A program made the position numbers and the translations under genes. Under the pieces are notes generated by a model that saw nothing but the letters and a program-made list of their open reading frames with translations, was not told the DNA's origin and made no database searches. 64,000 bases of DNA, from positions 1-64,000 of the forward strand of contig ML991784.1 in assembly GCA_010094025.1 (NCBI GenBank), written 5' to 3'. Positions 77 to 18,922 of this stretch are shown one piece after another. The stretch is from Viridothelium virens (taxonomy: Eukaryota; Ascomycota; Dothideomycetes; Trypetheliales; Trypetheliaceae). Position 1 is the stretch's first letter. Every line of letters starts with the position of its first letter.

Positions 77-1604
77 ACCTATCACGCCCAAGTCTGACGA
101 CACCAGCTCAAGGGATACGCCACAACTGAGCCAATGCTGAAAGCTACGCCTGGGCGATCTAAGCCTGCTCGAGTTATGTCTGATTAACGCGTGTACCCGC
201 CTAAGTACCGCCCAAGTACCGCCTGATTACCATCTGAACAGCTTCTGGTTACTGCCAAGTGACAATTGGCGGTGCTAAGCCCATCAGCGGAGGGTAGTAT
301 GTTCATGGTACTCTGCCGAACAATAATCTAATCGTCAATCATGTTGTATCATCCTATCCTGTCCTATCCAACTAAGCGATCGAAAATTAATATTAATAAC
401 TTCTAGGTAACAGGTATGCCAGCCCTCTGTAAGGCTGAGCCATAGGAGTTACATAGGACTAAGAAAACATACATATCTAAGGTAGGTAAAGTCGATATTG
501 TTTTCAAGACAAAGTTGTTGGAGTAGGAATACTGAAATGTAGTTTTCAAGTTTAAGTAGCAGAGAGAGAAAAAGAAAGAGAAAAGGTGAAGATAACTGCA
601 AGCATTACCTAGTACCAACGAGGTTACGAGATAATATCTGCCCTAAGAACTCGCTTCAATCCGGTGACTCTGGAAGCCACTTCCTCCAACAAAAGTTGTC
701 TACCTATAGTCCTGCTCACTACAAGAGGCGCCTCGCGGCATAGGAACGGATGTTATCCCTCTTTTCCCTGCTCAGTTCCACCCTGGCTAATTAATTCACT
801 GAGCGTCCTAGATGATCTTCGGGCATGAGCGATATGCTGAAGCACCTTCCTTGAGCTTGACTGATCATTGCAAGCCTCCTTTACCTTCCAACAATCGCAT
901 GATGCCCGAAGCATTCCAGGCAGCGACGCAAAGAGCCGGCACATGAGATGGTGCAGAAAAAGAGACAAGATGTCGACCGGCATATGTGCAGAGAGTACTC
1001 TACAGTAGGATGGGGGCCTAGGATTGAGCCCCCACGAACCTACGTCACCGATCGCACCGACCACACGGAACAACACTTTAATCTCACGGATCGCATCGTC
1101 CGCATCTACTGCCGAAGTAAGCCGGCGTCTGAGGGTGCAAGCGCGGCCACAGCACGAATTAGGGCTCAAGTCTACATGCGGCCCTGCAGGCGAATATCTC
1201 AGCGCTAATGATGCTTGGTATGGCTGCACCGCTGGTAATTAACCCAAGTGCAGTCGTCGAGATTGCGTGGCCCGGGCCTATTGCCTTTTCCAACAGCATC
1301 AATATACCCTACGCTAGTTTCTACCGACGATGAGTGGGTGGAGCTGGAAATTGGAGTATCTTCCTGTGCCATAGGCAAAGCAATATGTACTTCGCAAGAT
1401 GTACCAGAGAAACTTGGACCTGGAGCAGTCTTGGCCGATGCTGCGACAATGCACTGCAAACGCCACTCTCCATACGACCAATCGTTAATCTATTTCGAGA
1501 ACCATACGTTTACGATGTCGCACGCTAGAACGAGAGTTCACCCCTTGAACCGCACAATGCGGAACCATATATGAATAGACCAGTACTTATCTGAGCTTAG
1601 AAAC
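77..1604. other. Intergenic, no supported gene
   Basis: Only short, overlapping open frames on both strands are seen, none with a recognisable motif. The longest is a 158-codon minus-strand frame at 753-1229 with no family resemblance. The 3' part must contain the promoter of the O-methyltransferase that starts near 1605. I see no clear TATA box. Confidence 0.5.
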
Positions 1605-3048
1605 GTGGATTCCGTAGGTACTTTACCCTGGTTTTGTGCACTCGATATTACTCTAGACAACACAGCAATGTTCGCCAACGCTCGAACGATGGGTAATGAC
1701 GCGTCTATCCATCAGCACAAGCTAAGCAGCAATGCAAATAGCTGCCGGCAGAGCAGAATAGTCGAACTATCTTCCATCGTAGCATCAAATACGCTCAAGC
1801 TCGATCAGTACTTCGCCTCTGCCGGTGTCCCTACGCCCTCGTTCGACATCGACGCGCCTGTCAACATTCCACTGCCACCCGACCTCGAATCCTTACGAGA
1901 AAGTATCCTCGATGCCAGTACGGAGCTTAATGAGCTTCTACTCGGGCCTCGCGAAACCATGGTAGACTGGCAGTTCAACTACTATGTCCCGCTGCATGCT
2001 ATATCACATTACAAGCTCGCACATACCTTTCCGGTAGGAGAAGAAGCAAGCTTTGAGGATATCGCAGAAAAGAGTGGCCTCTCCACTCCCTTGGTACGGC
2101 GCTTGCTACGACATGCGATCGCCAATCGCATTTTCAAGGAAGTCAGGAAAGGGGTCGTCGCACACACGGCGATGTCCAGGTTGCTCGCGGAAGACACGCT
2201 GTTTCAAGACTATGTCGCTACCGGTGAGGATACACTTCGCGCAACCAGTTACACGGTGCGTGCTATGCTTAAATATCCGGGCTCGGAAGAACCAGGGCAG
2301 ACAGGCTTCTCACTGGGAGAAGGTAGCGATGACTCCTTCTACCAGATTATGGCGAGTGATCCGAGACGGGCGGAAAGATTCATGAATTGCATGATCATGA
2401 AATTACAAGGGCCCGGATACGATGTGGAGCATCTTGCTGGATACTCCCTTTGGGAAACCTTACCTGCAGGAAGCACAGTCGTCGATGTTGGCGGATCACA
2501 TGGAGAAGTAGCGAGCGCAATTGCGAAGCGATATCCTTCACTGAAATTCATCGTCCAGGATCTGGAAGCTACAGTAGACGTCCACACACATCTTTCAGAT
2601 CCTCTGGAAGGCCGTATCAGATTCATGGCGCACAACTTTTTCCAGCCACAGCCGGTGAAAGGCGCTGACGCATACATTCTCCGCTGGATCCTCCACAACT
2701 GGCCTGACAAATACTGCCTCAAGATACTCCGGAATCTGATACCTGCTTTGAAGACTGGAGCACGTATTTTGATCAATGAGTCGTGCTTGCCAGAGCCGAA
2801 TACGATGCCAAACAGGGCGGACAGGAAGCTACGGTTTGTTGTCTCTGATCTTTACACCAATTGAGTTACTGAAGATAGGCAGGGTAAATGACACATTGAT
2901 GTTGACACTTTTTAATTCTCAAGAACGCGACGAAGAGGAATGGATTGATCTGTTCCGCCGTACGGATCAGAGGTTTAGATTTGTTGGCATGAGTACTCCG
3001 GAGGGAGCGAATCTTTCTACCCTTGAGTTTGAATGGGCACCTGTATGA
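1605..3048 (+). CDS. Class I SAM-dependent O-methyltransferase (cluster O-MT 1)
   Basis: This gene likely methylates a phenolic or quinol hydroxyl of the cluster product. Two exons (1605-2833 and 2883-3048) are separated by a 49-base intron (GTTTGT...GGCAG). Splicing changes frame and restores the conserved C-terminus MLTLFNSQERDEEEW, so the apparent stop after codon 419 is intronic. The protein is about 464 aa. The N-terminal dimerisation part reads SRIVELSSIVASNTLKLD. The SAM-binding glycine loop is VDVGGSHGE, followed by the acidic VQDL. The catalytic-base region is LRWILHNWPD, with the His kept. The start is uncertain: in-frame Met codons at 1605, 1668 and 1689 are all possible, and the family is usually 400-440 aa. 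It is transcribed towards the NRPS-like gene, with about 450 bases between the two stops. Confidence 0.88.
2834..2882 (+). other. Intron of O-MT 1
   Basis: The donor is GTTTGT, which is unusual, and the acceptor is GGCAG. A TACTGAA-like branch site lies near the 3' end. The length is 49 bases, so removal shifts the frame and joins R-VNDTLMLTLF, matching the O-methyltransferase family. Confidence 0.75.
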
Positions 3049-3504
3049 CGAAATCTGGCATACTGTATCCTTGGAAACGAGTATGTCATCCAAATTTCTC
3101 ATATCCCGAGTCTGATCTATAATGCAGAAAGATGGATAGACTCCAAATATTGTCTCAGAGGAACGAAAATATTCTGTACTTTGAGCACAACCCTCTAGAT
3201 TTCCGAAAGATTTGTCCACTTGATTACCTGTCACATCCTGCATTCCTCATCTACCTTGTGTAGCGCTACCTTGCGGCTAGAAATCGACTGTATTACTGTC
3301 CGCATCCGTTTAGGGGAGGCAGGAGGGTAGCTCCCACGTAATTACCACCTCTACTCTACCCAACCTGCCCAGGTAGGTTCGGTAGGTATTACCTTAGGTA
3401 GACAACTTCACTTCCACCTGGATAGCTTCGGACTACATACATCAGACAGATCAATGAATGCATCGTGCATACTTTCATCTTGATCGTTGTGGTCGCCAGC
3501 AGAC
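3049..3504. other. Shared 3' intergenic region between convergent genes
   Basis: This region separates the 3' ends of O-MT 1 and the NRPS-like gene. It holds both transcription ends. Around 3350-3405 it has several copies of short TACCT/AGGTA-type words such as AGGTAGGTT, GTAGGTATTACC and TTAGGTAG, a motif cluster common in fungal intergenic DNA. No gene was seen. Confidence 0.5.
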
Positions 3505-6306
3505 TCAGAGTCCTCGCTCCTCAAGTGCCCTTTTCAATGTACTTTGAAATGAAACAACGTGCGTCGGACTGATCATTGTATAATGCTCTCCATCCACATC
3601 GTGGATTCGTGGCGCTGTCTTCGAGAAATCGTTCCATTTGCTTAAGCTATTCTCCTTCCACTCCTGCTTCGAACTCGACACCGCAGCAAGCGGTATCGCA
3701 CAAAAGACATCGATACTATCGACCATACCTGACGGCTCATAATCACGAGCCATACTCTGAAGATTATGTGCCAGGTTTGCCCAATTGGATAATTTATTTG
3801 CCGTGAGACCGAGGCACTCCAGTCGCGCAGGGTCCGAATCAGCAAGAATAGCGTCAACGACTTCATTCTTTGTAGAAAGCGCATGCATCGCTGTAGAGAT
3901 AGCGCGGGCGTGACTGGAAGTGATGAGCTCGAGGAAATAGGAAAGATTGAGGATGCCTTCGACCCAATCGAGCTGTTCCATGCGCGACTTGATATGTGGT
4001 GGAAGATTAAACGAGCCAAGGAATTTGATCTCACTGTCATCTTCAGCTTTCATCGCTTTCGAGACTTCAAAGGCTAGCATAGACCCATAAGAATAGCCCG
4101 CAATTGCATATGGGCCTTGTGGTTGTCGTTGCTTAATTGCTCGATGGTAGGTTTGAGTCGCGTCCGTGATGTCGCTAAAGTATGCTTCGCCGTCGAAGCC
4201 TCGGGCGCGTAAAGCGTAGATTGGGCGATCGCTAAAGTACTCGGCTAGCGCTAAAAATACTAGGACTTCTCCGACGCCAGGGTGGATAAGCCATAACGGC
4301 GTCTTCTTCCCCCCACTTTGAAGTACCACGACAGGATCGTATGAGTGGGGGTTTTGGAGACCATCAATAGCAGAAGTCAGTGCCCGAACAGTTGGGTTTG
4401 TCATGATTGTGATTAACGGTATTTCATCAAAGCCCAACACTATTTGAAGGCGCTTTTTGAGCCGAAGCAGGTTAATGGATGTTATCCCAGCTCCAAAAAT
4501 GCTGGTTTCAACCCCGATTTCCTGGCTACAAGAGCTCAAAATAAGTTTGCATTCCTTCAAGATCGTTTGTTCTGTTCGATTCGTGGGCTGGTCGTGGGTG
4601 AGGGATCTTGATTTGCGTAACAACTCGTCGTTGCGTTCTTGGAACGTCAGAAAGTCGCCTCTTCCGAACGCAGCCTGGATCTTGCTTCGTGATAGTTTTC
4701 CCAGTGTAGATCTGGGTAGCACCGATAAATCTAAAGGTAGAACGTAGGGACATACACCCATATACATTATCGTAATTTGTTCGATCCTGTCTTTGGTATT
4801 AATCCGCGCCGTAATATCGTGTGGTTCATAGGTAGGAGCATAGACTATGCACACTTGCTCGGTCGGCGAGTCCTGCGGGCGATATGCGAAAGCAAGAGTG
4901 TGGTTGGGTGTAATTCCGATGCTCCGATCATCTTCAATAGCAGTCTCAAGCCCATCGGGAGAGTGTTTTACGCCGTTGACGTTGAGGACTTCTTTAATTC
5001 GGCCGGCTAGATTCAGATGGCCTGCTTCATCGATGTAGGCTCGATCACCTGTTACGAACCATCCGTCACTGGTAAATGCGGCCGCAGTCGAGACGGGATC
5101 GTTGTAGTACCTCTTGAAGACTGAAACCCCACAGAGCTCTAGTTGACCAGGTTCATTGGTTGCTGCCATTTTTCCAGCCTCCCCTTGGACTGTGATGCGC
5201 ATCTCCGTACCAGGGTTGCATATGCCAAGAGATGCGAACTGACGGTTTAAGCTGATGTCATTTCGCGGGCCCAAAGTATTATAAATAGCGCCGGCACACG
5301 TCTCTGTCATACCGAATCCCGGCGTGACGGTAATCCTCTTGGCTCCATGGGCTCTGAACATCTTGTTAATAGCATCACAAATCTCGACAACGTTAGCTTC
5401 CCCGCCCGAAGCGATGGTCCGCAAATGTGAGAAATCCAAATTGAGTATTTGGCCATCGATAGTATCAAAAGCCGATTTCAGTCTTGTGAGGAAGAAATTA
5501 GGCGCAAATGAGAAAGTCGCCTTGTGTTTGCTTAATAGCCGAAGGAAGCCATCCGGATCCGAGAGCACATCTGTGGCAGATACGAGGACTTGGTCGGCTT
5601 GGACGTACATTGCTGCGATATGGCTCTCGACTAGACTGGCAACGTGATCCAAGCCGACCCAATTGAGGAATGTATCTCCTGGTTTGAAACCAAGGCCATG
5701 ACTCTTACCCAAGATTGCACTGATGACTTGCGCGTGCGTCAAGCAGACGGCTTTGGCATTAGCAGTGCTCCCGGAGGTGAGCATTAGCATAGCTATGTCC
5801 TCGCTGCGCGCTATGTCGGGATCGACCTTGTGTTGTTGACTATCGGAGCTTCTTAATTCTCTTATTTCCTCGACTGTGCGAATGTTGAGATCATTGCCTC
5901 CTTCAAACTCGTGAAGGAGACTCTGTCGAGTAATGCAAATAGGGTGGCCAAGAAGAGTCTTCAGATGCTCGATGTGCCGTTGCCTCTGCTCTCCATGACT
6001 TGTGAAGGGGGTAGAGATAGTCGGCACACACCCAGCTATTACAGCCGCCCAAAACCACTGAATGTTATCGATGTGGTCGTGAAAATGGATGAGTACTATT
6101 GAACGACTACGTATTCCTTCAATTCTTTGCAGTAAGTCCGAATAATTGTGAGCTCGCCGCAACAATTCTCGATAGCTCATCCAATTTCCATTTCCGATAT
6201 TACCGGGAGGATAGAGAAAGAGACCTCTGTTCTTCTCAACGGCAGCGGTGTATAGGACATCTGATAAAATTTGAGCTGGCATTATGAAGCAATTTAGGGA
6301 GGTCAA
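3505..6306 (-). CDS. NRPS-like synthetase, A-T-TE (quinone/furanone synthetase type)
   Basis: This is one uninterrupted 933-codon frame with the TdiA/AtrA/MicA architecture: adenylation, thiolation and thioesterase, with no condensation domain. Family members activate two aromatic alpha-keto acids (phenyl-, 4-hydroxyphenyl- or indole-pyruvate) and fuse them on the TE. The A domain (about 10-560) shows LMLTSGSTANAKAV (A3), NWVGLDHVASLVE (A4), GFGMTETCAG (A5), GDRAYIDEAG (A7), GRIKEVLNVNG (A8) and the PRSTLGKLSRSKI Lys region (A10). The T domain has FGAGITSINLL, with the carrier Ser at about 610. The TE has GYSYGS, with nucleophile Ser at about 739, and GEHYTM, with catalytic His at about 908. 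All expected catalytic residues are present, so it appears functional. Met9 is an alternative start. It is the core gene of the putative cluster. The substrate cannot be read off by eye. Confidence 0.93.
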   Translation of the reverse strand: MTSLNCFIMPAQILSDVLYTAAVEKNRGLFLYPPGNIGNGNWMSYRELLRRAHNYSDLLQRIEGIRSRSIVLIHFHDHIDNIQWFWAAVIAGCVPTISTPFTSHGEQRQRHIEHLKTLLGHPICITRQSLLHEFEGGNDLNIRTVEEIRELRSSDSQQHKVDPDIARSEDIAMLMLTSGSTANAKAVCLTHAQVISAILGKSHGLGFKPGDTFLNWVGLDHVASLVESHIAAMYVQADQVLVSATDVLSDPDGFLRLLSKHKATFSFAPNFFLTRLKSAFDTIDGQILNLDFSHLRTIASGGEANVVEICDAINKMFRAHGAKRITVTPGFGMTETCAGAIYNTLGPRNDISLNRQFASLGICNPGTEMRITVQGEAGKMAATNEPGQLELCGVSVFKRYYNDPVSTAAAFTSDGWFVTGDRAYIDEAGHLNLAGRIKEVLNVNGVKHSPDGLETAIEDDRSIGITPNHTLAFAYRPQDSPTEQVCIVYAPTYEPHDITARINTKDRIEQITIMYMGVCPYVLPLDLSVLPRSTLGKLSRSKIQAAFGRGDFLTFQERNDELLRKSRSLTHDQPTNRTEQTILKECKLILSSCSQEIGVETSIFGAGITSINLLRLKKRLQIVLGFDEIPLITIMTNPTVRALTSAIDGLQNPHSYDPVVVLQSGGKKTPLWLIHPGVGEVLVFLALAEYFSDRPIYALRARGFDGEAYFSDITDATQTYHRAIKQRQPQGPYAIAGYSYGSMLAFEVSKAMKAEDDSEIKFLGSFNLPPHIKSRMEQLDWVEGILNLSYFLELITSSHARAISTAMHALSTKNEVVDAILADSDPARLECLGLTANKLSNWANLAHNLQSMARDYEPSGMVDSIDVFCAIPLAAVSSSKQEWKENSLSKWNDFSKTAPRIHDVDGEHYTMISPTHVVSFQSTLKRALEERGL

Positions 6307-7816
6307 GGAAATGGAAGAATTTCAGGTGACGGGGAGAAATAGGAAAGGCCTCTAATGAAAGTGACATAGTCCATCTACATTCGGCACTTTTGCGGACTTG
6401 TACGCCAGGTTGACCAGGGCAACTGTGGGCCCCAGACCTGCAGAGGTACATAACGTGAAGTCATTACTTAGAAGCGAACCAAACTCCGCCTTTTGAACGG
6501 TGTGAAGAAAACCTACGAATAAGAGCGCCACGTTGAGGAAATTACTTCAAACGAGCTCATGATCCAACAAAGGCCATGATCGCATTCCGTTGCAGTGACT
6601 AGCTTCAGCCGAGGCGTAAGATGCAAGGCATTGCCATCCTCGCCGCCTTACCTAGGCATTACAGAGCCAGGGTGTGCTTTTCGTGCTAGGGAGGATACGG
6701 TATTTCGAGCGCTATCCGGTGCTATTGGTTGGTGTGTCTACAAACGTCTGTTGGATGAGATCCACTGCGATGGAGTCCAATGAGAGATCGTGAACAGAAA
6801 GAATGGCAGACTGGTTTGATGTAAAAACAGACAGCGTCTCGGCTTGACTGTTCAAAATACCGTGGATAATGGAGCCTACGTGACTGCGTCCTCCAGACAA
6901 AATACCGTGGGCCCATGTCGAGGTTATTTCCGGAACTCAGCTGCCATGTTGGTGCTATCTTCAGTTACTCGAACTGCCAGCAGGACTTCTGGAGGTGGCC
7001 TGCATTTCCAGGGGTCGGATATGTGTCGAAAAGATCACAGAGAACGTCGGCCGGAAGTGAATCGCATTCCCGTGCCGCTCCCGGAGGCGGTGAAGCGTTC
7101 CGTGGACTAGGTAATTGCCACCCCTACCGTGCGGCGCATACGATACCGTATGTCTTGGACGTAGACGGTGGAGGTAGGATTCGAAACTACTCCGTACATC
7201 TCACCCGATCCAAACGACTTCGAAAAGGCGATCATTGCACCCTATAAGGCAGTCTGACTGAATCCGCTGGACTCATGTACCGGTGCGGAGCCGGCTTTTG
7301 CATTGTTGAGCCAATCATATTCAGACATCAAAGCCATCATGACAGCTGAAAGTGATTCAAACATATGTGTAGTCCATCAGCTCAATCGCCGCACCTGGGC
7401 ATATGTCATGTTCATGAATCTAATCCCAGATCGCCGGTCTAATTCCTTGATGAGCTGCTTGCAATTCGGATTCGGCTCTTGACCGAAGAGACACGGTTAG
7501 AGTATGCCTCGGCGCTCTCGGCAGAAGTAAGCAAAACGGTCAGCTTCTTTCCTTGGTCTGCTTTTCTTGAAGTGAATGTCTTTTTGCAGAACGCAGCTGT
7601 TCACGTTAGCTCTGTTCTGAACTTCTGCCAAGCCTTACGCAAGTAGGGGTCCCGTCCTCTCGAGTCGAAAATCCAAGCTTATCTCCGTTGACGCCTGAAT
7701 ATAGCGTTTCTTGGCTAGGCTTGTCTACTCAATCTATTTGTGAGGTTTTCCGCAGGTTCTCTGGAACAGTTTGTGCCTCAAATTCATTGTCCGCAAAATT
7801 CCCTTGCCCCTCCGAT
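6307..7816. other. 1.5 kb gap in cluster; possible decayed gene
   Basis: The left part holds the NRPS-like promoter. No intact gene was found. Short frames at 6915-7247, and near 7185-7255 in another frame (PYISPDPNDFEKAI), have protein-like composition but are broken by stops, and no family was recognised. A 13-base word CAAAATACCGTGG occurs twice (near 6853 and 6898). The right end must carry the promoter of the dehydrogenase-like gene. Confidence 0.35.
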
Positions 7817-8960
7817 ATGGCTGTCTCGAGCGAGCACATAGCTTTTCTAGGAATAGGTAACATGGGTCAGGTCAGCTCTACTCCAAGCTGTGAGGCAAGC
7901 GATTATCAATGCTAAGGGTCATAAGGGTATCACAAAAAACCTAATTTCGAAGGGCAGGCTACGGGAGCAACTAGTGCTATGGAATAGAACTTATCGAGTC
8001 GCCGCAGACCACAGTACAGCCATCGGACATTCAAGAGCTACGTCGGACATTTCAGAAGCTATTGATGGATCGAGTATTGTTTGGTCGTGCCTTTCGAACC
8101 AAGAAGCTGTGATAGAAGTTTTTGGCCGGGCTTTGCAGAGGGACGTGCGAGGCAAGCTGTTTGTCGAAAGCTCCACCATTACTTCGCAGGCTACAGATAA
8201 GATTTGCCGAATGGTCGAAGCAGCCGGAGCAGACTTCATTGCTATGCCGGGTAAGTCTTCTATCCCTAGATGGCAGCAATGACAGCTAATTGATCTTTTC
8301 TTTTTCCGTGCAGTCTTTGGAGAGCCCACAATGGCGCAAAAGGGCATTCTTACGTGTGTACCTTGCGGAAAAAGGGAGGCTGTAGATCGCATTCGACCGT
8401 TCTTAATCGGAGTGTTAGTCGCACTTCTTTCCGGGTCCGTGGAAATCACAACAGGGCTAACTCTACTAGTGTTGCTCGAGCAATCGTTGATTTGAGTGGA
8501 GAACAGCCTGGCAAGGCATCACTCCTAAAGCTGCTCGGGAATACTCTCATATTGAATACCATAGAAATGATTGCTGAGAGCCATGTTTTCGCAGAGAAGA
8601 CAGGTCTGGGAGTTGAAAATCTGCAGAAATTGATTGAGACCACATTCTCCGGGGGCCCGTCCATGATATATTCGAGGCGTATGAGCAGTGGTGAATATAG
8701 TCAAGGAAAGGTCAGTCTACTGAATATCATTTGGGGCACAGCTGCTTATTGCTCCTCAGCCTATGGTCAATGCTGGCCCTGCAACAGAGCTGGCAGCGCA
8801 TGTTCTGGAGGCTGCGCGGGAGTCTGGCGCGCATCTGCCTGCGTATGAAGTCGCAGTCAAGCACTTAACGGCCGTGCGGGATCGCACTGGAGCGACTGAA
8901 GATATATCTGGAATTTACGGTGTCGTGAGGCTTGAAAGCGGTCTAAGGTATAGTGATTAG
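7817..8960 (+). CDS. 3-hydroxyisobutyrate dehydrogenase / 6PGDH-NAD-binding family reductase
   Basis: This is an NAD(P)-dependent beta-hydroxyacid dehydrogenase-like protein of about 309 aa, the usual length of the family. There are five exons: 7817-7870, 7917-8250, 8314-8413, 8470-8710 and 8760-8960. All introns are GT-AG, of 46, 63, 56 and 49 bases. The N-terminus has the Rossmann motif FLGIGNMG. The middle has VLWNRT and the substrate-loop signature LFVESSTITSQATDK. The conserved lysine region is GEQPGKASLLKLLGN, and the C-terminus ends GIYGVVRLESGLRYSD. Splicing restores the family sequence across every junction, including AMPVFGEPTM and FLIGVVARAIVDLSG. Its place in the cluster suggests reduction of a keto group or imine of an intermediate. 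A primary role in valine catabolism is less likely, because the gene sits between cluster genes. Confidence 0.87.
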
Positions 8961-10632
8961 GGCTCATAGTCATGTGCCGCATGCAAGTGCTCTGATGTTG
9001 ATAGATTTCCCTTTGCTTCTTTCTTGGACTGGTAGTGCTTTTTTAGGACGCGGTAGACTTCATATCTGGCATGGTCGATACTCTCCTTGTAGAACTGGAA
9101 TACTACGACCCCGGAGTATGTCGAATAATTACATGGATACGGATCTTGAGTTGACTTCCTCCAATTTACCATGCGAGTCTCCGAGCAACGAACTGATGCT
9201 TGACCGCAGCCGGCGACTCTGGAGCCATGCGACCTCGATCTTAGGAATGTTGCCTGATGTAGGCCGTCTGTGCATCCGGGGGGGCCATCGGACCACACCC
9301 AATTTGGCATAGGGTATGTTGCTGTCTCGTCGCCTTTCACCAATACTCTACTCTATTCGTTAGAAGTACAGATGTGGCAGCCGCAACGTTGGCTTTACTC
9401 TAGTCAACTGTCTTCAGAATTTCAGCTGTCGACTGTGCCGCAAGCGGCGTGCAGCCCCGCAGAATATTGATGCAAGTTGCCCCGCAGGGTGCAGTTGGCT
9501 ACCTAGAATGCTACATACCTGACGGTACATGGTTGTCTGCATCGGAAAGCACGATCGACGGGATTCCCCCACGTACTCTATCCAATAACCCTGTCTCTAG
9601 ACCACGCACACATACACCCATGCACAAACACGTCAAGGGACTTACGCCGGTCCGTCATCCGATAAAGCTCGTTGGGAGCTGAGATTGGATGGTCTGCCGG
9701 GATAAGGCTGCATTGCGGAAGGCAGCGGGCCGTCCGCAAGGCATTGGTTCACCGGGTGCTAGCAGATGGGTAGAAAAAATTCCTGCCGCCACTTGTCTCG
9801 GCCATCGCACGCCTCTACTTGGCAAAGCCTACCTAGTTTCTTGGCGGTAGAGCAAGGTCAGGGGTCTCAATTTCTTGCCTTTCCTTCTGCTTCGCTTAAT
9901 CGGGCACAGCACTTATCTTGCAACGCTGTGCCTTTTTCCTGCCTTCGGGGTCGGTGTATCATGCGCCTCAAAGATTACTTTTATCTTTTTCTACGGCTGC
10001 TAGACATTTTGGCCAATCGCACTCCTCTCCCATTTCTTTGCTAACGCGAATCTTTGTAGCTTCGACATGAGCTTTGTTCATTCCCTACTTCTCATGCTGA
10101 AGTGCCTTGACTACAAATCCACACAGATGCAGATATGCAAGCTTGGTCCAGTCTGGCGGTTCTCGTTTCGACAAATCGTTTCATATGTCTGGATATCCAT
10201 GTCCTCCAATTTCAGCTCAATGTAGATCAACGAGTAATTGACTGCCGATACTCTATTCCTTTTCCGGCGCGTGAATTTTGAGCAGAGTGCTCTTGCATAT
10301 CATGTCTGGTTCGCTCGGAGCAGAGGAAGGCAGCCACTTGACCTATTTCATATCCAACTGCAGAAACAAGCGTACACGGCAAGTACGCCATCAATGCATG
10401 GATACAATAACACTGCGGCGCAGCGAATGGTATGGAGCGCAGAAATCTGCAGTTGCCGCCGCCTTGGCCTTCCTCCTTCACGTACTCTACAGAGTTGCCG
10501 CAGGCCTCTTACTAATTTGCAACGCCGTGCTTTCACTTGCTTTCTGAGGCCATAGAAGTCCTCAAAGATCCTCTATTCTATTTCTTTACCTGACATATTT
10601 TGAACACTGCACGCTAGACAACGTCAGCAGAC
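8961..10632. other. 1.7 kb intergenic region with a duplicated promoter-like segment
   Basis: No gene with a recognisable motif was seen; the open frames are short and inconsistent. The region ends in the promoter of the SAT4-family gene. It contains a diverged direct repeat, listed separately (about 9910-10010 and 10507-10602). Confidence 0.5.
9910..10010. repeat. Diverged direct repeat, copy 1 (copy 2 at 10507-10602)
   Basis: Copy 1 has GCAACGCTGTGC at 9920-9931 and CCTCAAAGAT at 9966-9975. Copy 2 has GCAACGCCGTGC at 10519-10530 and CCTCAAAGAT at 10560-10569. A T/C-rich stretch and a GACAT(A)TTTT word follow in both, and the spacing is alike (46 and 41 bases). Copy 2 is the core promoter of the SAT4-family gene, so copy 1 looks like a relic promoter duplication. 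Confidence 0.5.
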
Positions 10633-11964
10633 ATGGAGGAAAGTCGTTATGTCACTACCATTGCTGTGGGTATAGTGATGGCAACCCTGGCTTCGATTGC
10701 TGTGGCCCTACGTTTTCGCGCACGCCGTGTACGCAAAGTTTCCTTCAAAGCCGATGATTACGCTGTTGTCATTGCTCTGGTAACAATACAAAGGAGGTCA
10801 CCCGGAGGAAGCGATGACTGACCATGAATCAGATCTGTCTGTTGGGACAATGCATTTGCAATCTCGTTGGTGAGCCACAAAGAACCTCTGGCGTGACCAC
10901 ACACCCCACAGTGCGGACTTTTGACGTATACTGTAAGGAGCGATCGTCGGTAGGATGGGAACGCACTACTCCCTTTCGCATATGGATCCTTCTGACACTG
11001 TCGCACTTCAGAAGATGATTCTCCGGTCAAAGGTAAGATGGCATCCGCCAGCTCTACCGTAGCAATGGTGCTCACTATCTTGTGCAGGTCATTTGGTCGC
11101 TGAATGTCCTGTGTTCCCTTGGGCCTGGCTTTGTTAGAACGAGCGTGATCCTTTTTTATCAGAGAATATTCATCGAAACTCCGTTCTTGATGGTCTCTTG
11201 GACAATTTTCGCGCTAAATGCTACTTGGACACTCGGCTTCTTCCTCAGCAATCTCTGTAAGTTGCTTGCGCAAGCAATGAAGCTAGTAGGTACTAATAGA
11301 TCCAGTATCCTGTGTCCCAATTTCTGGAAATTGGGCCGTGGGGCTTCCTCCATCCAGCTGCGTCGACTTTCTCATGCTATTTAAGTCCATGGTAGTCTCG
11401 AGCGTCATCCTTGATGGCGTAGTTCTTATGCTACCATGGTATCCGCTGTGGAAGCTTAACATGCCTACGATGCGCAAGGTTGTTGTCTCTGGTATCTTAC
11501 TCCTTGGTGGCTTGGCGGTGCTCTTCAGTATCTTTCGCGCCGTTGCAATGTTTGATGCCTTAGTACCAAATCCTGATACTACATGGACCCGTGCGCCTGC
11601 ATTCTACTGGGCAACGCTCGAGACTGGCATGGGTACCATAAGTGCCTGTCTGCCGACGCTCCGACCTTTAATGAGCAAGCCGGGTCCCGAGAGCATGGTC
11701 AGGAGTCTACACCGAAAGCTTCGTCGTACTCTATCAAGGACGAAACTCTCGCAAGACTCGAACTCTATGGAGCATTTCCCAAGAGAGAGTGGCGAATCCG
11801 GAGAGAAGTCGTTCCGTACAATGGAAGCTCAAGGACCGTTAGTGTATGATGGACCCAGGTCGACGGCGTACGATCGAGCAACCCGCATCGAGGCGGGGCA
11901 AAACGAAGATTTGCCCACTTCTTCCGAGGCTATCGTGGTCAAGTCTACGTTTCAATCGTATTGA
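10633..11964 (+). CDS. SAT4/rhodopsin-like integral membrane protein
   Basis: This fungal seven-helix membrane protein belongs to the family often found in biosynthetic clusters and near PTH11-like receptors. Its biochemical role is unknown. The N-terminus has a first helix (TIAVGIVMATLASIAVAL), then ALRFRARRVRK and DDYAVV. Later exons give VIWSLNVLCSLGPGFVRTS, SWTIFALNATWTLGFFLS and SSVILDGVVLMLPWYPLWKL. The family-typical TISACLPTLRPL precedes a polar cytosolic tail. The intron with donor GTAAGTTGC near 11257 and acceptor near 11307 joins LSNL to LSCVPISGNWAVG, so the frame change there is splicing and not damage. An intron runs from about 11033 to 11088. The first introns (from about 10780) are not fully resolved, so residues 50-80 are uncertain. 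Confidence 0.78.
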
Positions 11965-12915
11965 CAAGAGACGAGAACGTTGAACAAATAGCTAAGCTCC
12001 TGGAGATCGGGTCGAAGACTTTCGACATAACTTGGTTGCTGCCCAAGCAAAAAGAAAAGTCGTTTTCTGTTTTGCTATACAGTCTATGTTCCAATGGTGA
12101 TGAGCTGGTGGTATACTTAGGACTCAAGCGCGCCTAGTGCCATTGATCTTTTTCTCGTAAGGTCTTTCGCTTGTCCAGACAGTGTAATTGCATAAAGCCT
12201 CAGAATTTAGCACTCCTAGTGTTTTAGTTTTCAAATATCAGGATGGCTCGAAAGGATTGTGTTGAAAAGCACATATACCTGCGATTTAGGCACCCCGATG
12301 CTAGCTCTTTTTCTCCCGAGCACAGCTCCTTTCGACGTGAGCTATGACCTGCTCAGTTTATCAGGGATCAACCAAAACTAAGAAAGGATCACCTAAGATT
12401 GGACGAGGATTAGACGCAAGGTGAGTAACGTGCATTGCACCGATACAGGCAGCAAGCGTGTAGGCAATGAGACGGCTCACAACTCCGGTCCCATGCGAGC
12501 GGCCTAGGTAATTCTGTTGGCGCTTTAATGTAAGGGCTCACTGGGCTCTGCGCGCTTTCGCCCTTCGGAACACAGCCGTGTCCGCTCGACTGGGAACGGC
12601 CAATACAACTGGGTACCTAATGTACGCATCCATCGGCGCTAAGAGAGGCACCTGACAATACGGCAACTTGAGAGGGCTCGCTGCAGAACTAGGCAACAGC
12701 TGCAAGAACCAACAGAGCATTTCCCCCTGTAGCTCGGGGTTGTTGACCTCTGTTTTGGATGACACTGCCGTCTTCTTCGCTAGCTATTCTAGAACGTCCT
12801 CCGATACAGGACAAGTATTTAGGCGTGAGAGGCTCTTGAAGAGTGTGCGAGTTGACAGAATTCAACAGCAGACGATTTTGCTCTCGTTCAGAAACATCAC
12901 CTTTCAGTAGATGCA
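11965..12915. other. Intergenic region within the cluster
   Basis: This is a 951-base gap with no supported gene. It holds the SAT4-gene 3' end and the upstream region of the GST-like gene. No repeat or clear promoter element was seen. Confidence 0.5.
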
Positions 12916-14080
12916 ATGACCAGCAAATGGTTCAATCCTCCACCTCCGGCATTCACGTCTTTCATTACCTCCGATCCAGCGTCAGAATTTCCTGCTGAGC
13001 CTAACCGCTATGTAAGAATGGTTTCTTAACCCAAGTCACAAACCAAGATTAATGCATCTGCTTCTTTCAGGTTCTCTATGTCCACTATGGCTGCCCATTT
13101 GCTCATCGAACCAACATCGTGTACCACTTGAAGCGTCTTCAGTCCTTGGTCGGATTCAGCGCGGTCTCCATTCATCGCGATGGGGACAACGGGTGGGGTT
13201 ACGATGGAAGCTCTGGCTCTGATAGCGCAGATCCTATCTACGGCTTCAAGAATCTCCGGCAGCTCTACGAAAAAGCCGACCCTGAGTACAAAGGCGGCTA
13301 TTCAGTACCGTTTATTTTTGATCGTAAAAAGGAAACGATCGTGAGCAATGATAGTAGCGATATTGTTCGGATGCTCTCCACTGCGTTTGACAGTAACCTG
13401 GACCCCGACCTGCGGGAGGAGAACAAAGCTGGCGGAGGCCTTTTGCCTGCACCTTTGAAGGCAGAGATTGAGGAATTGAACGACTGGGTCAACGAGGACG
13501 TGAGCTGGGGCGCCTACAAGTGCGGCTTTTCTCAAACGCAGGAACATTACGATGAGGCTATGACCGCTTTGTACAAGGCGCTCGACAAGCTGGAGGAGAG
13601 ATTGGCAGAAACAAAATTCTTGTTTGGAGACCATATCACAGAGGCGGATGTCCGGTAAGAAGAGCGAAGATCTTGAAGTACCGGCAATGAAGCTCAGAAT
13701 CTGCGATAGCTTGTTCCCGACGATAGCGCGATTTGACATGGCGTATGTTACGGTCATGAATTGCGACTGGAAACAAATCCGATATGATTATCCAAATCTG
13801 CACCGCTGGCTCAGACATTTGTACTGGGAAGTTGACAACGATGCCAAAGATGCATTCAAAGGAACGACCCATTTCGATATCGTAAGTCCCATCAAATCAG
13901 TCTTGCTCTGACGATGCCTTTGGATCCAGATTAATCCCCAAAAATTATCACGCATGTTCTCAACGCTAGCTATATTGCTGACCCAAAAAATAGTTCATGG
14001 AAGGATACGCAAAGTCCGCGATGAGATTGAAGCTTGTGCCTTGGGGTCCTAAAAAGCCGATATTGCCATTGAGTGATTAG
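12916..14080 (+). CDS. Glutathionyl-hydroquinone reductase-like (xi-class) GST
   Basis: Members of this family (ECM4/Gto, PcpF-like) use a Cys to remove glutathione from glutathionyl-hydroquinones. Four exons (12916-13011, 13071-13654, 13710-13881, 13994-14080) encode about 312 aa. The N-terminal thioredoxin-like domain has LYVHYGCPFAHRTNIV, with the catalytic Cys at about residue 40 in the CPxAHR motif. Further family marks are a Val-Pro cis-proline site (YSVPFIFDRK), SSDIVRML, AYKCGFSQTQEHY, LFGDHITEADVRL, RFDMAYV, YDYPNLHRWLRHLYW and the C-terminal VPWGPKKPILPL. The 112-base third intron could hide a small extra exon, but single-intron splicing gives the family ending. Next to an A-T-TE synthetase, which can make quinones, a role in quinone tailoring or self-protection is an inference. 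Confidence 0.85.
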
Positions 14081-14674
14081 ATCTAGGTGAAGCGTGTCCC
14101 TTGCGGTGGCGTGACTCTGGCCGAGAAGTCATGCAGGATATACAACACGAGTGACGAGTCACAAGTGACGAATGGATCATGGCGTGCGTAGATGAATAGA
14201 GAGGGCTACCCGAGCATGAAAGTAGAACAAGCTTTAGCACACTCAAGCCATCCTTGCGCTTACTGCAAATGAATGATTGGTACCTTGACTTCTTGGTGCC
14301 GAGGTCAAGTCACCAATATTTAGCGCTCTCGTCGGTTCTCCCGGTGATGACGAATAGAGATATGCGTCCCAAAGGCGCAGTAGGTACGTGCTCGAGGCAG
14401 AGGAAGGGGCACTGCTTTCCAGGATCTAAAGTAGGCGAATTCCGAATTTTCCCTTTGAAATCAGGCTGGACGATGACTGCATTTGCGCGAGGCTGAGATG
14501 CGTTGGGTTGAAGCTGAAGGTCACCGGAAGTCTGTGCATGCCTCAAGACGCCGATTAGTTTTGCAGGCTCCGGAGAGTCGTGAAGGTTCCTTGGAGCCGG
14601 ACCCAAATAACTTGGGACGTACAGACTATACAAAGGAATGAAATTCTAATCACCATCTTCTCTGTAAAGTCGGA
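14081..14674. other. Intergenic region upstream of O-MT 2
   Basis: No gene was seen in these 594 bases. Near 14140-14170 there is a cluster of GTGACGAGTCACAAGTGACG, a local direct and inverted repeat. The right end carries a TATA-like box before O-MT 2. Confidence 0.5.
14627..14634 (+). promoter_or_regulatory. TATA-like box of O-MT 2
   Basis: TATACAAA lies about 41-48 bases upstream of the ATG at 14675, with no other gene between them. This is a single sequence match, not a tested promoter. Confidence 0.3.
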
Positions 14675-16162
14675 ATGATGGAACAAACGCTCGAGCAGCT
14701 ACGACAATTCGCCGTCGATGCAGACACAGCTAGTAAGAGAAACCTCTCACTTGCATTGAGAGAATTTTCCTATGCTCTGGAGTCTCCAGAAGACACGACA
14801 GCAAGAATCACTTCCTACGTAGGCTTTCCCGAAGCCATTAGCTCTTGCTCGCAAGCAGTCCGAGCCACTCACGTAATGATTAGATCCTCGAGGCGGCAGT
14901 TGTGCGGACCGGTATTGACGTAAAATTGTTCAAATGTCTCGCAAATAGTGAAACTCCTCTGCGTGTCGAAGATCTGGCTTCGGAAAGTGGGATGGAAGCC
15001 GATTTCGCTGGTAAGGATGGTACAAATCCTATGAGAAGTCGTCTCCGCTGAAGCAAGATCCACAGGCAGATATCTGCGATGTCTGGCATCCTTTGGATAC
15101 ATCGACGAACCCTCAAGTAACATGTTTGTAGCAAACAATGTCACAAAAGCAATAGACGATCCAGGAAGGCAGGCAGAGATTATCCACTAGTAAGTCCATG
15201 TAACTCCAATTCTCCATTTTCAAGTCTTCGAACCCAAGCCTCAGCCAGGCTGTGTTTCCTGCCTTGCAAACCTTCTTACTTCTTCTGGGGTGGTAGCTTC
15301 GACACCGTTGGTCCAGCAATTTGCGCTATGCCTGAGTTTCACCGGATCCACGGCTATACCAATCCGCCCTCTGCAACCAATTGCCCTTTCCAGCTTGCGT
15401 ATCAGACCTCAAAGTCTGCATTCGAATTTATGCCAGAGCTTTCGCAGTACAGACTCGATGCATTTCACACATACATGAGCACCCGTACAGCCAACGCCAA
15501 ATCCTGGCTTTCGGTATATCCATTTGCTCAGGAGATTGATGAGAGTGGTCCAAGCGATGTAGTCTTCGTCGATGTAGGCGGCGGAGCGGGACATCAGTGC
15601 GTTGAACTTCGAAAGGCTTTTCCAGAATTGCAAGGAAGGGTCATTGTTCAGGATCTAGAGTATCCGATTAACAAAAGGCTTCAACACCCGGGCGTGGAGG
15701 GAATGGTACATGATGCATTCAAGAAACAGCCTGTGAAAGGTTCGCAAGATACCCCTCTCCCGCCTTAGCTAATGCTCGCGCCACGCTGCACGACGCAACA
15801 GAGTTTCCCAGATGAAAAGACTGACAGCGGATGCAGGTGCACGTTTCTATTATCTCCGCGCTGTACTTCACGATTGGTCGGACGAGGCCTGTGTCTCCAT
15901 GCTCAGTAACCTCAAACCCGCCATGGATCTTCAATCGCGCATCTTGATTGACGAACAAGTCCTGCCAGACCAAAGCGTAGACCGGATCGCGGCGGGCATG
16001 GATCTCACGATGATGGCATGCTTTGGTAGCAAGGAACGCACTGAAAGCCAATGGAAAAATATGCTGGACGATGTAGGGCTGTTAATCGAGCGCCAACGGC
16101 GCTATGAAGGTCGCGTGGGGTATGAGACCGTAATGACCGTCAGGAAGAAGGAATTGTCATGA
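14675..16162 (+). CDS. Class I SAM-dependent O-methyltransferase (cluster O-MT 2)
   Basis: A second cluster methyltransferase, clearly different from O-MT 1. Five exons (14675-14818, 14884-15010, 15066-15189, 15297-15739, 15837-16162) give about 387 aa. Two adjacent ATG codons (14675 and 14678) can start it. Splicing restores the plant-caffeate-type fold: AAVVRTGIDVKLFKCLA, GRYLRCLASFGYIDE, ANNVTKAI, HYFDTVGPAI, then the SAM loop VDVGGGAGH, VQDLEY and the catalytic stretch GARFYYLRAVLHDWSD with its His. The end is YETVMTVRKKELS. All introns are GT-AG and consistent in phase. Its likely role is O-methylation of a hydroxyl of the scaffold made by the NRPS-like enzyme. Two O-methyltransferases suggest two methylation positions or two intermediates. 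Confidence 0.88.
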
Positions 16163-17426
16163 ACGGAGGACTCTCTCCGGAGTTCTGTACACAACCAGGA
16201 AATTCATGCAAGTGGCTCGTGCGTCTGTTTTCGTACAGCAAACAGGCTGGTGGTTGATAAATTATCCTATCAAGGCGGTGGGCCGATAGAGCCATTTTTA
16301 CGATCGCTTAATAATCAGTAAGACTTGTCAGCTCTACTAGTACACCGATGTTTAATTATTATTACTTGAAATGCAAAGGTGATAAGATATCAGTCACTAG
16401 GATCGAGTAAAGGCTGGTCCAGCCTGCAAGGAAGGTGAACAGAAGTGGCAGATTACAGACTCTACCTGTTCGACTAAGAAATGTCCTATTTTGACACGGC
16501 CACCATATCCAAAAACTTCATCTTAACTGATTTGGTGATTTGATATTTGCTTATTTAGTGATTCACTCTACAAATTTTGTATAGTCTTCTACAGTAGCTT
16601 TCATATGGCCAAGAATCCAAGAACTTAAGGAGTGTTTTAGACTCTTAGAGCTCCAGATTTGATCTTTTTTTTCTGTCCAGAATCCATCTGTAAAGGATTG
16701 GTTGTGATAGCGTGAAAGATATAGACTTCTAAAATGTAAATAGTTCACGTGTAGCTTCTAACTAGATATTTAGCAGTATGTACAGATCGGGGATTCTAAC
16801 TCCATTCTGCCATTCTTCTAATTGGTTTAATTATAAAAACACCAGCTTGTTATTCTCATCTGTTCTTTTATATCTATTAATTGCTCGATATCTATTGAAA
16901 TTTTTGGAAAAGAGTTTATATTCTTAATAGTTTAAATTTAATAGTGGATATTAAATCACCAAGTCGGTGAGGAATTCGACACGCATTGATTAAGCCGAAG
17001 TGCGCAATGACCTTGCCATACACCCAGCCAGGCTAGCAGCCTTGGCCCGACGACCCAGCAAAATTACGCCCAGCTCAATGTTGGCTTAAATTTGGCTTGG
17101 GCTTGCTGCGCTCAGTCTGGCTCAAGTCAGTGCTTAAATATAAGCTAGAGCTAGATAGCTTAGCATGGGGTGTGGACACAGGGTCGCGTAGCCTACGACA
17201 ACTCAATTCAAAGTCGCGGAAGTGGTCTTAACGAATGCTTCCTTTTTCTTGCCTTTTCTCCTAGGCCGAGCGTAAGAGAGGTGGAATATTTGGTAAAAAC
17301 CTGTGAAATTACCTTCTGAGGCTTTGTACAAACCAATGTGCGCCGCATCACGTGACCGAAGATTGTACATTCACAGAACTTCTGACAGCGCACCTCCTCT
17401 GCTCTATTGACCATTAAATAGTCGCT
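16163..17426. other. AT-rich, gene-poor boundary region
   Basis: No gene is supported. Bases about 16,480-16,960 are visibly AT-rich, with many TTTA/TAAT words and stops in all frames, unlike the neighbouring genes. This is the look of old repeat DNA, possibly affected by repeat-induced point mutation, but I recognise no transposase. It marks the right edge of the putative cluster. Confidence 0.5.
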
Positions 17427-18922
17427 TTATCGCGTCGTTTTGGTACGCTTCGAGGGGCGACTAGGGTTTGATGCTAGAGAAGGACGCTTTGCTCGGGCAG
17501 GAACTTGACCATCGGGTGAGTTGGCACTATCGTTCGGCGAACGTGATATTGAATTAGAAGTCAAAGCTGGTTCCGCATCCCATTGACTCGGATTGTTTTC
17601 GCTCTCGATTTGGTCTGCGATGCTATTTGCCAATCCAATTGCCTCATCCCTTTGCTCCTTAGCCCAGTCTCGTAGGTTCCTGAATGCGGCTGTTCCTCTT
17701 CGGAAGGTCTCAATGTCCCCGGCCATTGCCCAAGAACCAATGGGGTACGTGTAATACTTTTGTCGATTACTTGTTTGAGTAGTGTAGACAGTATATATTG
17801 AAAGCGCGGAGTAGAGATAGACTGACGTAATGGTGTGCGCATTGTTGTCGAAATTTGCTTCGTTTGTCCCATATGAGCGAAGCTGATGCTGCCCTCTTTC
17901 ACCTAATGCGCCGTCATAAACACACTGTCGTTGTGCTACCCGTATGGTGCCGTCGAAACCCTTTAGATGAAGAAAAAAGTTCGGTGCAATAGGATGTGTT
18001 TCTAGGGAGGAAGGAATGATTGTCCGATAGAGCCTGTCCCGCACTCGACGATCAAGCTGCTCGGGGGGTGCGCCATCATATAGGTCAGGATTGCCCGGTG
18101 TGAGAGGATAATCGATCAGACTTTGAAAGTTCGCAAACTTGACTTTACTAGAAAAAGTATAGGCCTCTTGGGTACTGCCTTCAATGGTGTTGACTACGTT
18201 CCTTGAAACGTGGTCCTCGTCTGATGACTTTGCTGCAACATACTGAAACTCTTCGAACTCCTCATCTGTATATCGAGATGGCGAAAGAGAAGATCGACGT
18301 TGTTCTGCTCTCTCTTTGATCTCTTCTATATTCTTCGGTTTCTCAGGCCTTCGACCATCTGGATATTTGTAAAGGGGTGGGAAAATCCCATTGTCAACAA
18401 GGATCTGTTCGAAGTTACGAGAATAGGGGCCGGTGCTTTCAGTCTTTGCGGTAATGGTAGCGTCTGTATTCTTCGAGACCGATAGACGGTTTGTTGGTGG
18501 CATTGTAGAGTGTTCGAGAGGGTTAATAGGTTCTAGATACTAAATGAGATTAGCATTTAAATGTATTTATGACATCTGATTATGCATACCCCTCTTAGAT
18601 CAGACGTGTCTGGTCCACCCAGTTTGGAAAACCGTTTAAGCTCCTCAAAATCGTCCTTTGAGTATTTATTCAATATCTCAGATATGGACTGCTGGCCTTT
18701 GGTCCACTTGGTAAGAAGGCTTCGAGTGAGAGGCCGGCGAAATCGTCGATATGGTGGTGGGCCATTGTTAGGCTTGTTGTTTCTGCGGTTCAACTCTTTC
18801 AATGCGCGTTTGGTGAGCCAGATCTTGGACGGTTTATCCCAATAACTTGATGGCGGCTGAGAGTCTCTGTGATTGAGTTGGGAACGCCGCTCCGTACATC
18901 GGAGTATGTGTAAATCAGACAT
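17427..18922 (-). CDS. Fungal orphan-family protein (DUF7924-like)
   Basis: Two exons (18922-18590 and 18539-17427) with a 50-base intron (GTATGC...TTTAG) join GGPDTSDLRG to YLEPINPLEH and give about 481 aa. I recognise the pattern from a family repeated in many ascomycete genomes, often in variable regions: LTKRALKELNRRN near the N-terminus, then STGPYSRNFEQILVDNG, the tract SLSPSRYTDEEFEEFQ, LTPGNPDLYDG, APPEQLDRRVRD, IAPNFFLHLKG and VYDGALGERG. The name DUF7924 is from memory and should be confirmed. The C-terminus is basic and Ser/Pro-rich (KRPSLASNPSRPSKRTK), a possible nuclear signal. The function is unknown. The gene lies between AT-rich DNA and a MITE-like element, which suggests accessory DNA. 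Confidence 0.72.

What the first reader, a model, noticed from the sequence alone, without database searches (positions are those of the whole stretch)
1605..16162. Putative quinone-type biosynthetic cluster: A-T-TE synthetase + two O-MTs + hydroquinone reductase-like GST
The sequence shows an intact A-T-TE enzyme, two unlike O-methyltransferases, a 3-HIBDH-like reductase, a SAT4 membrane protein and a xi-class GST within 15 kb. A-T-TE enzymes of the TdiA/AtrA family are known to build terphenylquinones and related scaffolds from two aromatic alpha-keto acids. Xi-class GSTs are known to reduce glutathionyl-quinones. The combination suggests a methylated (hydro)quinone with a dedicated quinone-conjugate recycling or protection step. 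I know of no described cluster with exactly this set, but that is memory, not a search.
Basis: partly seen in the sequence, partly recalled or inferred. Interest (0 to 1): 0.78.

Follow-up and report, generated by a model that had tools for sequence, protein, structure and literature searches.

The report
Fungal cluster for methylated p-terphenyls
A fungus carries a compact set of genes that most likely joins two phenylalanine-derived units into a three-ring quinone, reduces it and adds methyl groups, a kind of pathway already described in other fungi, with one unusual extra: an enzyme that may rescue the reactive quinone from glutathione.

Summary
Window 1668-16162 encodes an intact A-T-TE synthetase (925 aa), two family-2 O-methyltransferases, a 3-hydroxyisobutyrate-dehydrogenase-like (HIBDH-like) reductase, a fungal-rhodopsin (SAT4) protein and a xi-class GST. 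In the published alf cluster a dehydrogenase of this apparent kind (AlfC) reductively dehydrates polyporic acid to 2,3,5-trihydroxy-p-terphenyl, and an O-methyltransferase turns that into terferol (PMC12105029). The same genome holds a second A-T-TE gene (47% identical) with its own HIBDH-like gene beside it (52%, same four intron positions), so the pair belongs together. The A domain has Ile where published polyporic acid synthetases have Ile/Val, predicting phenylpyruvate. Best reading: a cluster for O-methylated 2,3,5-trihydroxy-p-terphenyls. New member of a known kind. The point worth testing is whether the clustered xi-GST removes glutathione from the C-H-bearing quinone intermediate; a 2014 review called the physiological substrates of such enzymes an open question (PMC4138524).

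The parts
1668..3048 (+). OMT1: family-2 O-methyltransferase, 443 aa, exons 1668-2833 and 2883-3048
   Evidence: models; PF00891 5.1e-28; LHNW motif
3505..6282 (-). A-T-TE NRPS-like synthetase, 925 aa, no intron; predicted polyporic acid synthetase
   Evidence: Ile290 at inferred code position 5, TE Ser731 and His900; best solved relative McyG 2e-71
7817..8960 (+). HIBDH-like (beta-hydroxyacid dehydrogenase fold) reductase, 306 aa, 5 exons; predicted AlfC/UcdB-type quinone reductive dehydratase; Lys180 kept
   Evidence: paralogue beside the second A-T-TE with the same four intron positions
10633..11964 (+). SAT4 / fungal rhodopsin-domain membrane protein, several exons, partly modelled; role unknown
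   Evidence: PF20684 1.8e-29 on 11290-11964
12916..14080 (+). Xi-class Cys-GST (glutathionyl-hydroquinone reductase type), 312 aa, 4 exons, Cys40 in GCPFAHR
   Evidence: (exon 2 only)
14675..16162 (+). OMT2: family-2 O-methyltransferase, 387 aa, 5 exons
   Evidence: models; PF00891 7.7e-21; LHDW where LepI reads LRDF
16200..17000 (.). A+T-rich patch with repeat relics (39% GC in 16001-17000) at the right edge of the cluster

Best explanation
A biosynthetic cluster for O-methylated p-terphenyls. Step 1 (inferred from domain make-up and pocket residues): the A-T-TE enzyme activates two phenylpyruvates and its TE domain condenses them to the benzoquinone polyporic acid. Step 2 (inferred from the published AlfC reaction and the conserved A-T-TE/HIBDH pair): the HIBDH-like enzyme reduces and dehydrates polyporic acid to 2,3,5-trihydroxy-p-terphenyl. 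Step 3 (inferred): the two O-methyltransferases cap two of the three hydroxyls, giving a dimethoxy-hydroxy-p-terphenyl such as 2-hydroxy-3,5-dimethoxy-p-terphenyl, a compound known from a lichen, and so keep the intermediate from re-oxidising. Side step (speculative): the trihydroxyterphenyl re-oxidises to deoxypolyporic acid, a quinone with one bare C-H that glutathione can attack; the xi-GST would strip the glutathione off and return the hydroquinone. The SAT4 protein's role is unknown.
For: Intact A-T-TE with TE Ser and His. The residue aligned with Ile290 is Ile in 64, Val in 4, Leu in 2 and unresolved in 10 of 80 bacterial loci; PMC10316625 links Ile/Val at code position 5 to phenylpyruvate and Asn to 4-hydroxyphenylpyruvate (passages). 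PMC12105029 (parts 1-2 of 6): AlfA makes polyporic acid, AlfC (306 aa) reductively dehydrates it, AlfD methylates to terferol; without methylation the intermediate re-oxidises and dimerises. The HIBDH-like protein here is also 306 aa and its paralogue sits beside the second A-T-TE. Both OMTs keep the catalytic-type His. An OMT1-like hit lies in 8 of 80 bacterial A-T-TE loci. PMC9000585 (part 1 of 3): 2-hydroxy-3,5-dimethoxy- and 2,5,6-trimethoxy-p-terphenyl are lichen metabolites. GST: of 11 PDB sequences at E<=1e-5, the best three are Trametes Xi GSTs, with the Cys aligned.
Against: AlfC, UcdB, RicF, AlfA, TdiA and MicA sequences are not held, so orthology of the reductase and the quinone-versus-furanone fate of the TE were not tested. 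Ile290 = position 5 rests on my recall of GrsA and on published residue numbers, not on a computed GrsA alignment; PMC10316625 itself says position 5 contributes to but does not strictly set specificity. Inferred position 322 is Gly here but Ala in 69 of 70 bacterial homologues, and the acid of the TE triad was not assigned. No shared promoter word among six upstream regions beyond shuffles. No aminotransferase, regulator or transporter was recognised in the stretch, and the left edge is a contig end. The second A-T-TE locus has no O-MT or xi-GST nearby. 0 of 80 bacterial A-T-TE loci (up to 8 kb held) have an HIBDH or GST relative; bacteria use other enzymes (EchB/EchC type), so they lend the pairing no support.
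Confidence: 0.72

Rival explanations
1. The A-T-TE makes a furanone, butyrolactone or dioxolanone (MicA-, BtyA- or PgnA-like), and the HIBDH-like enzyme reduces a side-chain ketone.
For: The TE sets the ring type and its product cannot be read from sequence here; PMC8403587 (passage) says the ring depends on the catalytic triad.
Against: The HIBDH-like partner matches the quinone pathway shown for alf and proposed for ucd; in my recall furanone clusters lack it. TE Ser731 and His900 are Ser in 77 of 77 and His in 71 of 71 resolved bacterial homologues, of 80; by taxon (mostly Streptomyces) these probably include EchA/DatA-type polyporic acid synthetases, but none was identified.
Confidence: 0.15
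2. As in the best explanation, but from 4-hydroxyphenylpyruvate (atromentin, rickenyl/terphenyllin type).
For: The most similar published gene set (ric) was predicted by its authors to use 4-hydroxyphenylpyruvate.
Against: Ile at the inferred code position 5, where 4-hydroxyphenylpyruvate enzymes have Asn; the second A-T-TE of this genome also has Ile there.
Confidence: 0.12
3. The GST (and perhaps SAT4) is a bystander: an ordinary xi-GST paralogue that happens to lie here.
For: Other related loci exist in the genome (C16 54%, C1 45%, C48 35% in two pieces, class of the last not checked); the alf table lists no GST; the C27 contig has none; no shared promoter motif.
Against: It lies between SAT4 and OMT2, 0.6 kb from OMT2, is intact with its Cys, and a GST-like gene is named in the legend of the ric/terrequinone-type cluster figure. 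Paralogues elsewhere could cover housekeeping.
Confidence: 0.45
4. One or both OMT-fold proteins are pericyclases of the LepI or HpiI kind, not methyltransferases.
For: Nearest solved structures are LepI (OMT2, 5e-67) and 7bqj/HpiI (OMT1, 9e-39) (that these are pericyclases is recalled). HpiI keeps a His at the place where OMT1 has its own (LHKE against LHNW), so for OMT1 the motif is a weak test.
Against: OMT2 keeps LHDW where LepI reads LRDF, and the O-methyltransferase mpaG' is close too (9e-47). OMT1 keeps HNW, as does its third hit 8pha, named only as an O-methyltransferase-domain protein.
Confidence: 0.1

Closest known systems
alf cluster (allantofuranone, Allantophomopsis lycopodina; PMC12105029)
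   Same: A-T-TE synthetase, a 306-aa dehydrogenase whose listed UniProt hit (P63936, recalled to be a 3-HIBDH) fits the fold seen here, and an O-methyltransferase
   Different: alf has a ring-cleavage dioxygenase, DAHP synthase and Zn regulator, one O-MT and no GST in its table; the window has two O-MTs, a GST and a SAT4 protein
ric cluster (rickenyls, Hypoxylon rickii; PMC8403587)
   Same: A-T-TE, two O-MTs and an NADP-dependent oxidoreductase; a GST-like gene is named in the figure legend (panel not stated)
   Different: ric was predicted to use 4-hydroxyphenylpyruvate, and RicF to make leucoatromentin (reduction only); the fold of RicF is not given in the passages read; no sequences to compare; no SAT4 mentioned
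ucd cluster (uscandidusins, Aspergillus ustus; as described in PMC12105029)
   Same: A-T-TE plus proposed bifunctional reductive dehydratase UcdB and methylation
   Different: ucd has prenylation, hydroxylation and an aminotransferase, and starts from atromentin
tdi / terrequinone cluster
   Same: A-T-TE and a quinone-reducing enzyme
   Different: tdi has a prenyltransferase and an aminotransferase and uses indolepyruvate
Xi-class GST / glutathionyl-hydroquinone reductases
   Same: sequence (1e-44 to Trametes Xi 3) and active-site Cys
   Different: here the gene sits inside a quinone-pathway cluster

Membership tests
A-T-TE NRPS-like (quinone synthetase family) | A-T-TE order, no condensation domain | tested here: met
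   PF00501, PF00550, PF00975 in order, no other family at E<=0.01
A-T-TE NRPS-like (quinone synthetase family) | Val at code position 1 (alpha-keto acid) and Ile/Val at position 5 (phenylpyruvate) | tested here: inconclusive
   Val214 and Ile290 at the inferred positions; mapping to GrsA numbering partly recalled
A-T-TE NRPS-like (quinone synthetase family) | TE forms a benzoquinone, not a furanone | not testable with these tools
   no characterised fungal sequences held; Ser731 and His900 present
alf/ucd-type p-terphenyl cluster | HIBDH-superfamily dehydrogenase beside the A-T-TE | tested here: met
   fold and position; pair recurs at C27; activity not tested
alf/ucd-type p-terphenyl cluster | sequence orthology of the reductase to AlfC/UcdB | not testable with these tools
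   AlfC and UcdB sequences not held
alf/ucd-type p-terphenyl cluster | family-2 O-methyltransferase with catalytic-type His | tested here: met
allantofuranone (alf) cluster proper | ring-cleavage dioxygenase (AlfB type) | tested here: not met
   none among the ten proteins and ORFs of window 1668-18509 scanned; small or multi-exon genes could be missed, and the left edge is a contig end
ric (rickenyl) cluster | A-T-TE + two O-MTs + oxidoreductase | tested here: met
   gene content against PMC8403587
ric (rickenyl) cluster | sequence homology to RicA, RicB, RicC and RicF | not testable with these tools
   ric sequences not held
terrequinone (tdi) cluster | prenyltransferase and aminotransferase | tested here: not met
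   none among the ten proteins and ORFs scanned (same limits)
Xi-class GST / glutathionyl-hydroquinone reductase | catalytic Cys in a CPWA-type motif and similarity to Xi/GHR structures | tested here: met
   Cys40 aligned with the Trametes Xi Cys; 9 of the 11 PDB sequences hit are Xi GSTs or GHRs by their own name or by the table in PMC4138524, the other two are named omega-like 2 (5lkb) and GST (6gzf)
Xi-class GST / glutathionyl-hydroquinone reductase | deglutathionylation of glutathionyl-hydroquinones | not testable with these tools
   needs an enzyme assay
OMT-fold pericyclase of the LepI kind (OMT2) | loss of the His-Asp-Trp motif | tested here: not met
   LHDW against LepI LRDF
OMT-fold pericyclase of the HpiI kind (OMT1) | loss of the His-Asn/Asp-Trp motif | tested here: inconclusive
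   OMT1 has LHNW; HpiI and 7bqj read LHKE and so keep the His

The most novel reading that the evidence does not exclude
The clustered xi-class GST is a dedicated biosynthetic glutathionyl-hydroquinone reductase. The HIBDH-like step exposes the first bare C-H on the central ring; the re-oxidised quinone is caught by glutathione there, and the GST returns it to the pathway before the O-methyltransferases lock it. That would give this enzyme class, found in bacteria, fungi and plants, a natural substrate.
Probability: 0.35. Interest if true: 0.62.

Novelty: new member of a known kind. Interest (0 to 1): 0.4.

Why it matters
The pathway logic is known, so the cluster itself is one more p-terphenyl locus. 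It would matter for the GST. A 2014 review (PMC4138524, passages) calls the physiological substrates of glutathionyl-hydroquinone reductases an open question, because the major cell quinones have no carbon that glutathione can take. A xi-GST gene lying inside a pathway whose predicted intermediate has just such a carbon makes that question directly testable with five genes in a laboratory host.

Tried and rejected
Tree of the A-T-TE enzyme with TdiA, AtrA, MicA, RalA and BtyA: not possible, no fungal sequences held. Relatives in bacterial genomes: the search for related loci with the two-sequence alignment A1 found none; a DNA pattern for HPGVGEVLVF found 101 stretches, of which 80 were given as loci, and 80 of 80 hold an A-T-TE homologue. 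The family is widespread in bacteria, but no HIBDH or GST neighbour lies within the up to 8 kb held.

Shared regulatory motif in six 600-base upstream regions: no word of 6-10 bases above shuffles, CGG dyads in three of six: inconclusive. Subtelomeric location: the first ~97 bases of the window recur at or near the ends of contigs C29, C131, C56, C12 and (in part) C62, but the sequence looks like the end of a transposable element (my reading) and the telomere pattern matched only on C156, whose start I fetched but did not compare: dropped. Naming the organism by 5.8S rRNA: no match in this assembly.

Pericyclase reading of the OMTs: rejected for OMT2 on its motif; for OMT1 the motif is a weak test, and on checking I raised that rival from 0.07 to 0.10. 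A GST in other A-T-TE clusters in print: searches listed 20 of 71, 20 of 10,198 and 20 of 26 papers, and most were not opened. Of those opened and searched for the word, PMC8403587 has the legend, PMC9047271 and PMC5523082 have none, and PMC4274970 names GSTs only in gliotoxin references. Papers seen in passages: PMC9047271, PMC10316625, PMC5523082, PMC8403587, PMC9379647, PMC4274970, PMC13178068, PMC4138524; in part: PMC12105029 (parts 1-2 of 6) and PMC9000585 (part 1 of 3). No paper was read whole. A structure prediction was not run: the folds are clear from sequence.
Full report
What is there. The window is the first 64 kb of contig C14 of an unnamed fungal genome of 30.7 Mb in 175 contigs. 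Between 1668 and 16162 lie six genes: OMT1 (+), A-T-TE (-), HIBDH-like (+), SAT4 (+), xi-GST (+), OMT2 (+). I read the DNA, spliced four genes and rechecked them: all 12 introns are GT..AG and the proteins have no internal stop. The A-T-TE is one open frame of 925 aa; the 922-aa stretch used in searches leaves off its last three residues. Three ORFs in the gaps gave no Pfam match. To the right of a 39% GC patch with repeat relics the genes look ordinary by eye. To the left is the contig end, whose first ~97 bases recur at or near five other contig ends, so more of the cluster could lie beyond.

The synthetase. Its A domain is closest among solved structures to McyG (2e-71) and then to a synthetase A domain (6ulx, 1e-45) that I recall as alpha-keto-acid-activating. 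Val214, Ala215, Phe263, Ile290 and Lys529 fall where I infer code positions. Of 101 stretches found in bacterial genomes by a DNA pattern, 80 were given as loci, and 80 of 80 encode a homologue. The residue aligned with Ile290 is Ile in 64, Val in 4, Leu in 2 and unresolved in 10; at inferred position 322 the window has Gly against Ala in 69 of 70. PMC10316625 (passages) reports Ile/Val at code position 5 in polyporic acid synthetases and Asn in atromentin synthetases, and that the residue contributes to, but does not strictly set, specificity. The TE keeps Ser731 and His900, Ser in 77 of 77 and His in 71 of 71 resolved homologues; the acid of the triad was not assigned. I predict phenylpyruvate and polyporic acid; the ring type was not tested.

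The reductase is the key. PMC12105029 (parts 1 and 2 of 6) shows by expression in A. oryzae that AlfA makes polyporic acid, that with the 306-aa dehydrogenase AlfC deoxypolyporic acid and a 5,5-linked dimer appear, which its authors explain by an unstable 2,3,5-trihydroxyterphenyl that re-oxidises or dimerises, and that the O-methyltransferase AlfD gives terferol. AlfC's listed hit is P63936, which I recall as a mycobacterial 3-hydroxyisobutyrate dehydrogenase. The window's HIBDH-like protein is also 306 aa, has the NAD-binding fold (8.5e-25), with the C-terminal HIBDH domain below its Pfam cut-off, and keeps Lys180 of the KLLGN stretch (role recalled). In the whole genome one search shows two intact A-T-TE genes (C14, and C27:243229-245985, 47% identical) and three loci of this reductase family (C14, C27, C20). 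Both A-T-TE genes have a reductase next door (1.5 kb and 0.9 kb). The two cluster reductases are 52.0% identical and share four intron positions; they are less like the C20 copy (40.7% and 47.7%), which shows only two of these introns. This is the strongest evidence that the pair is one functional unit. On C27 no xi-GST match was found and the only O-MT match listed lies about 94 kb away (lists of best candidates only); nine nearby ORFs scanned gave no tailoring enzyme.

The methyltransferases. Both belong to PF00891. Their nearest solved relatives are LepI (OMT2) and 7bqj/HpiI (OMT1), which I recall as pericyclases. OMT2 reads LHDW where LepI reads LRDF, so it looks like a working methyltransferase. 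OMT1 reads LHNW where 7bqj and HpiI read LHKE; those two also keep the His, so this test is weaker. The genome has many such genes (70 matching stretches for each OMT query, many of them exon pieces), so one O-MT near a cluster is no surprise; two within 15 kb is less likely by accident. An OMT1-like hit lies in 8 of 80 bacterial A-T-TE loci.

The GST. Of 11 solved-structure sequences at E up to 1e-5 the best three are Trametes Xi GSTs, and 9 of 11 are Xi GSTs or glutathionyl-hydroquinone reductases by name or by the table in PMC4138524; the others are named omega-like 2 and GST (query was exon 2). Cys40 falls on their catalytic Cys. Related loci elsewhere in the genome are 54% (C16), 45% (C1) and 35% identical (C48, in pieces, class not checked), so this one is free to be dedicated. 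Chemically it makes sense after the reductase step: polyporic acid has no bare ring carbon (recalled structure), deoxypolyporic acid has one, and I take that to be the carbon of the 5,5-linked dimer. Glutathione could add there, and this enzyme class removes it again. This is inference. Against it: the alf table has no GST, the C27 locus has none, no bacterial locus has one (0 of 80), and no promoter motif ties the GST to the other genes.

Comparison with the known. Gene content matches much of the ric cluster of Hypoxylon rickii: A-T-TE RicA, O-methyltransferases RicB and RicC, oxidoreductase RicF (PMC8403587; passages). The legend of its Fig. 15 lists "GST: Glutathione S-transferase-like", but not in which panel. 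Its authors assign RicF a plain reduction to leucoatromentin from 4-hydroxyphenylpyruvate-derived atromentin, and no SAT4 gene is mentioned in what I read. So the core set is not new, though "exactly this set" is not strictly refuted. Dimethoxy- and trimethoxy-p-terphenyls of the predicted kind are known from the lichen Stereocaulon alpinum (PMC9000585, part 1 of 3).

Verdict. Novelty: new member of a known kind. Its real interest is the GST, which would make the question of a natural substrate for glutathionyl-hydroquinone reductases testable.

Noticed in passing
L027:208-3000 (+) and 3885-5025 (+), genome C27:243208-248025: Second A-T-TE gene with its own HIBDH-like gene downstream on the same strand and no O-MT or xi-GST nearby: a minimal two-gene version of the same pathway.
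   Followed up: yes
genome C93:1287-1928 (-), L035: Degenerate TE-like fragment with stops (34% identical to the window TE) near a contig end: perhaps a decayed third A-T-TE.
   Followed up: partly
window 1-97: Palindrome-rich repeat end (GATAGCG/CGCTATC motifs) at the very start of the contig, 99-100% identical to stretches at or near the ends of contigs C29, C131, C56, C12 and partly C62: probably the end of a transposable element that broke the assembly.
   Followed up: partly
window 16459-16614: A+T-rich relic repeat, 77-78% identical to copies on C131, C33 and C4.
   Followed up: partly
window 17427-18509 (-): ORF with DUF7924 (PF25545, 1.5e-7), next to the cluster's right edge.
   Followed up: no
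window 32495-35962 (+): Long fatty-acid dioxygenase (Ppo-like, recognised by eye) whose P450-like part reads GFGPGREGLG, apparently without the heme-ligand Cys, as I recall for PpoC-type enzymes.
   Followed up: no
whole genome G000: Many family-2 O-methyltransferase loci: 70 matching stretches for each OMT query, many of them exon pieces; no comparison genome was checked.
   Followed up: no
L037-L116: 80 of 80 bacterial loci fetched by a TE motif (mostly Streptomyces, also Sporolactobacillus, Nocardia, Burkholderia and kin, myxobacteria) hold A-T-TE homologues at 35-44% identity: the family is wide in bacteria.
   Followed up: partly
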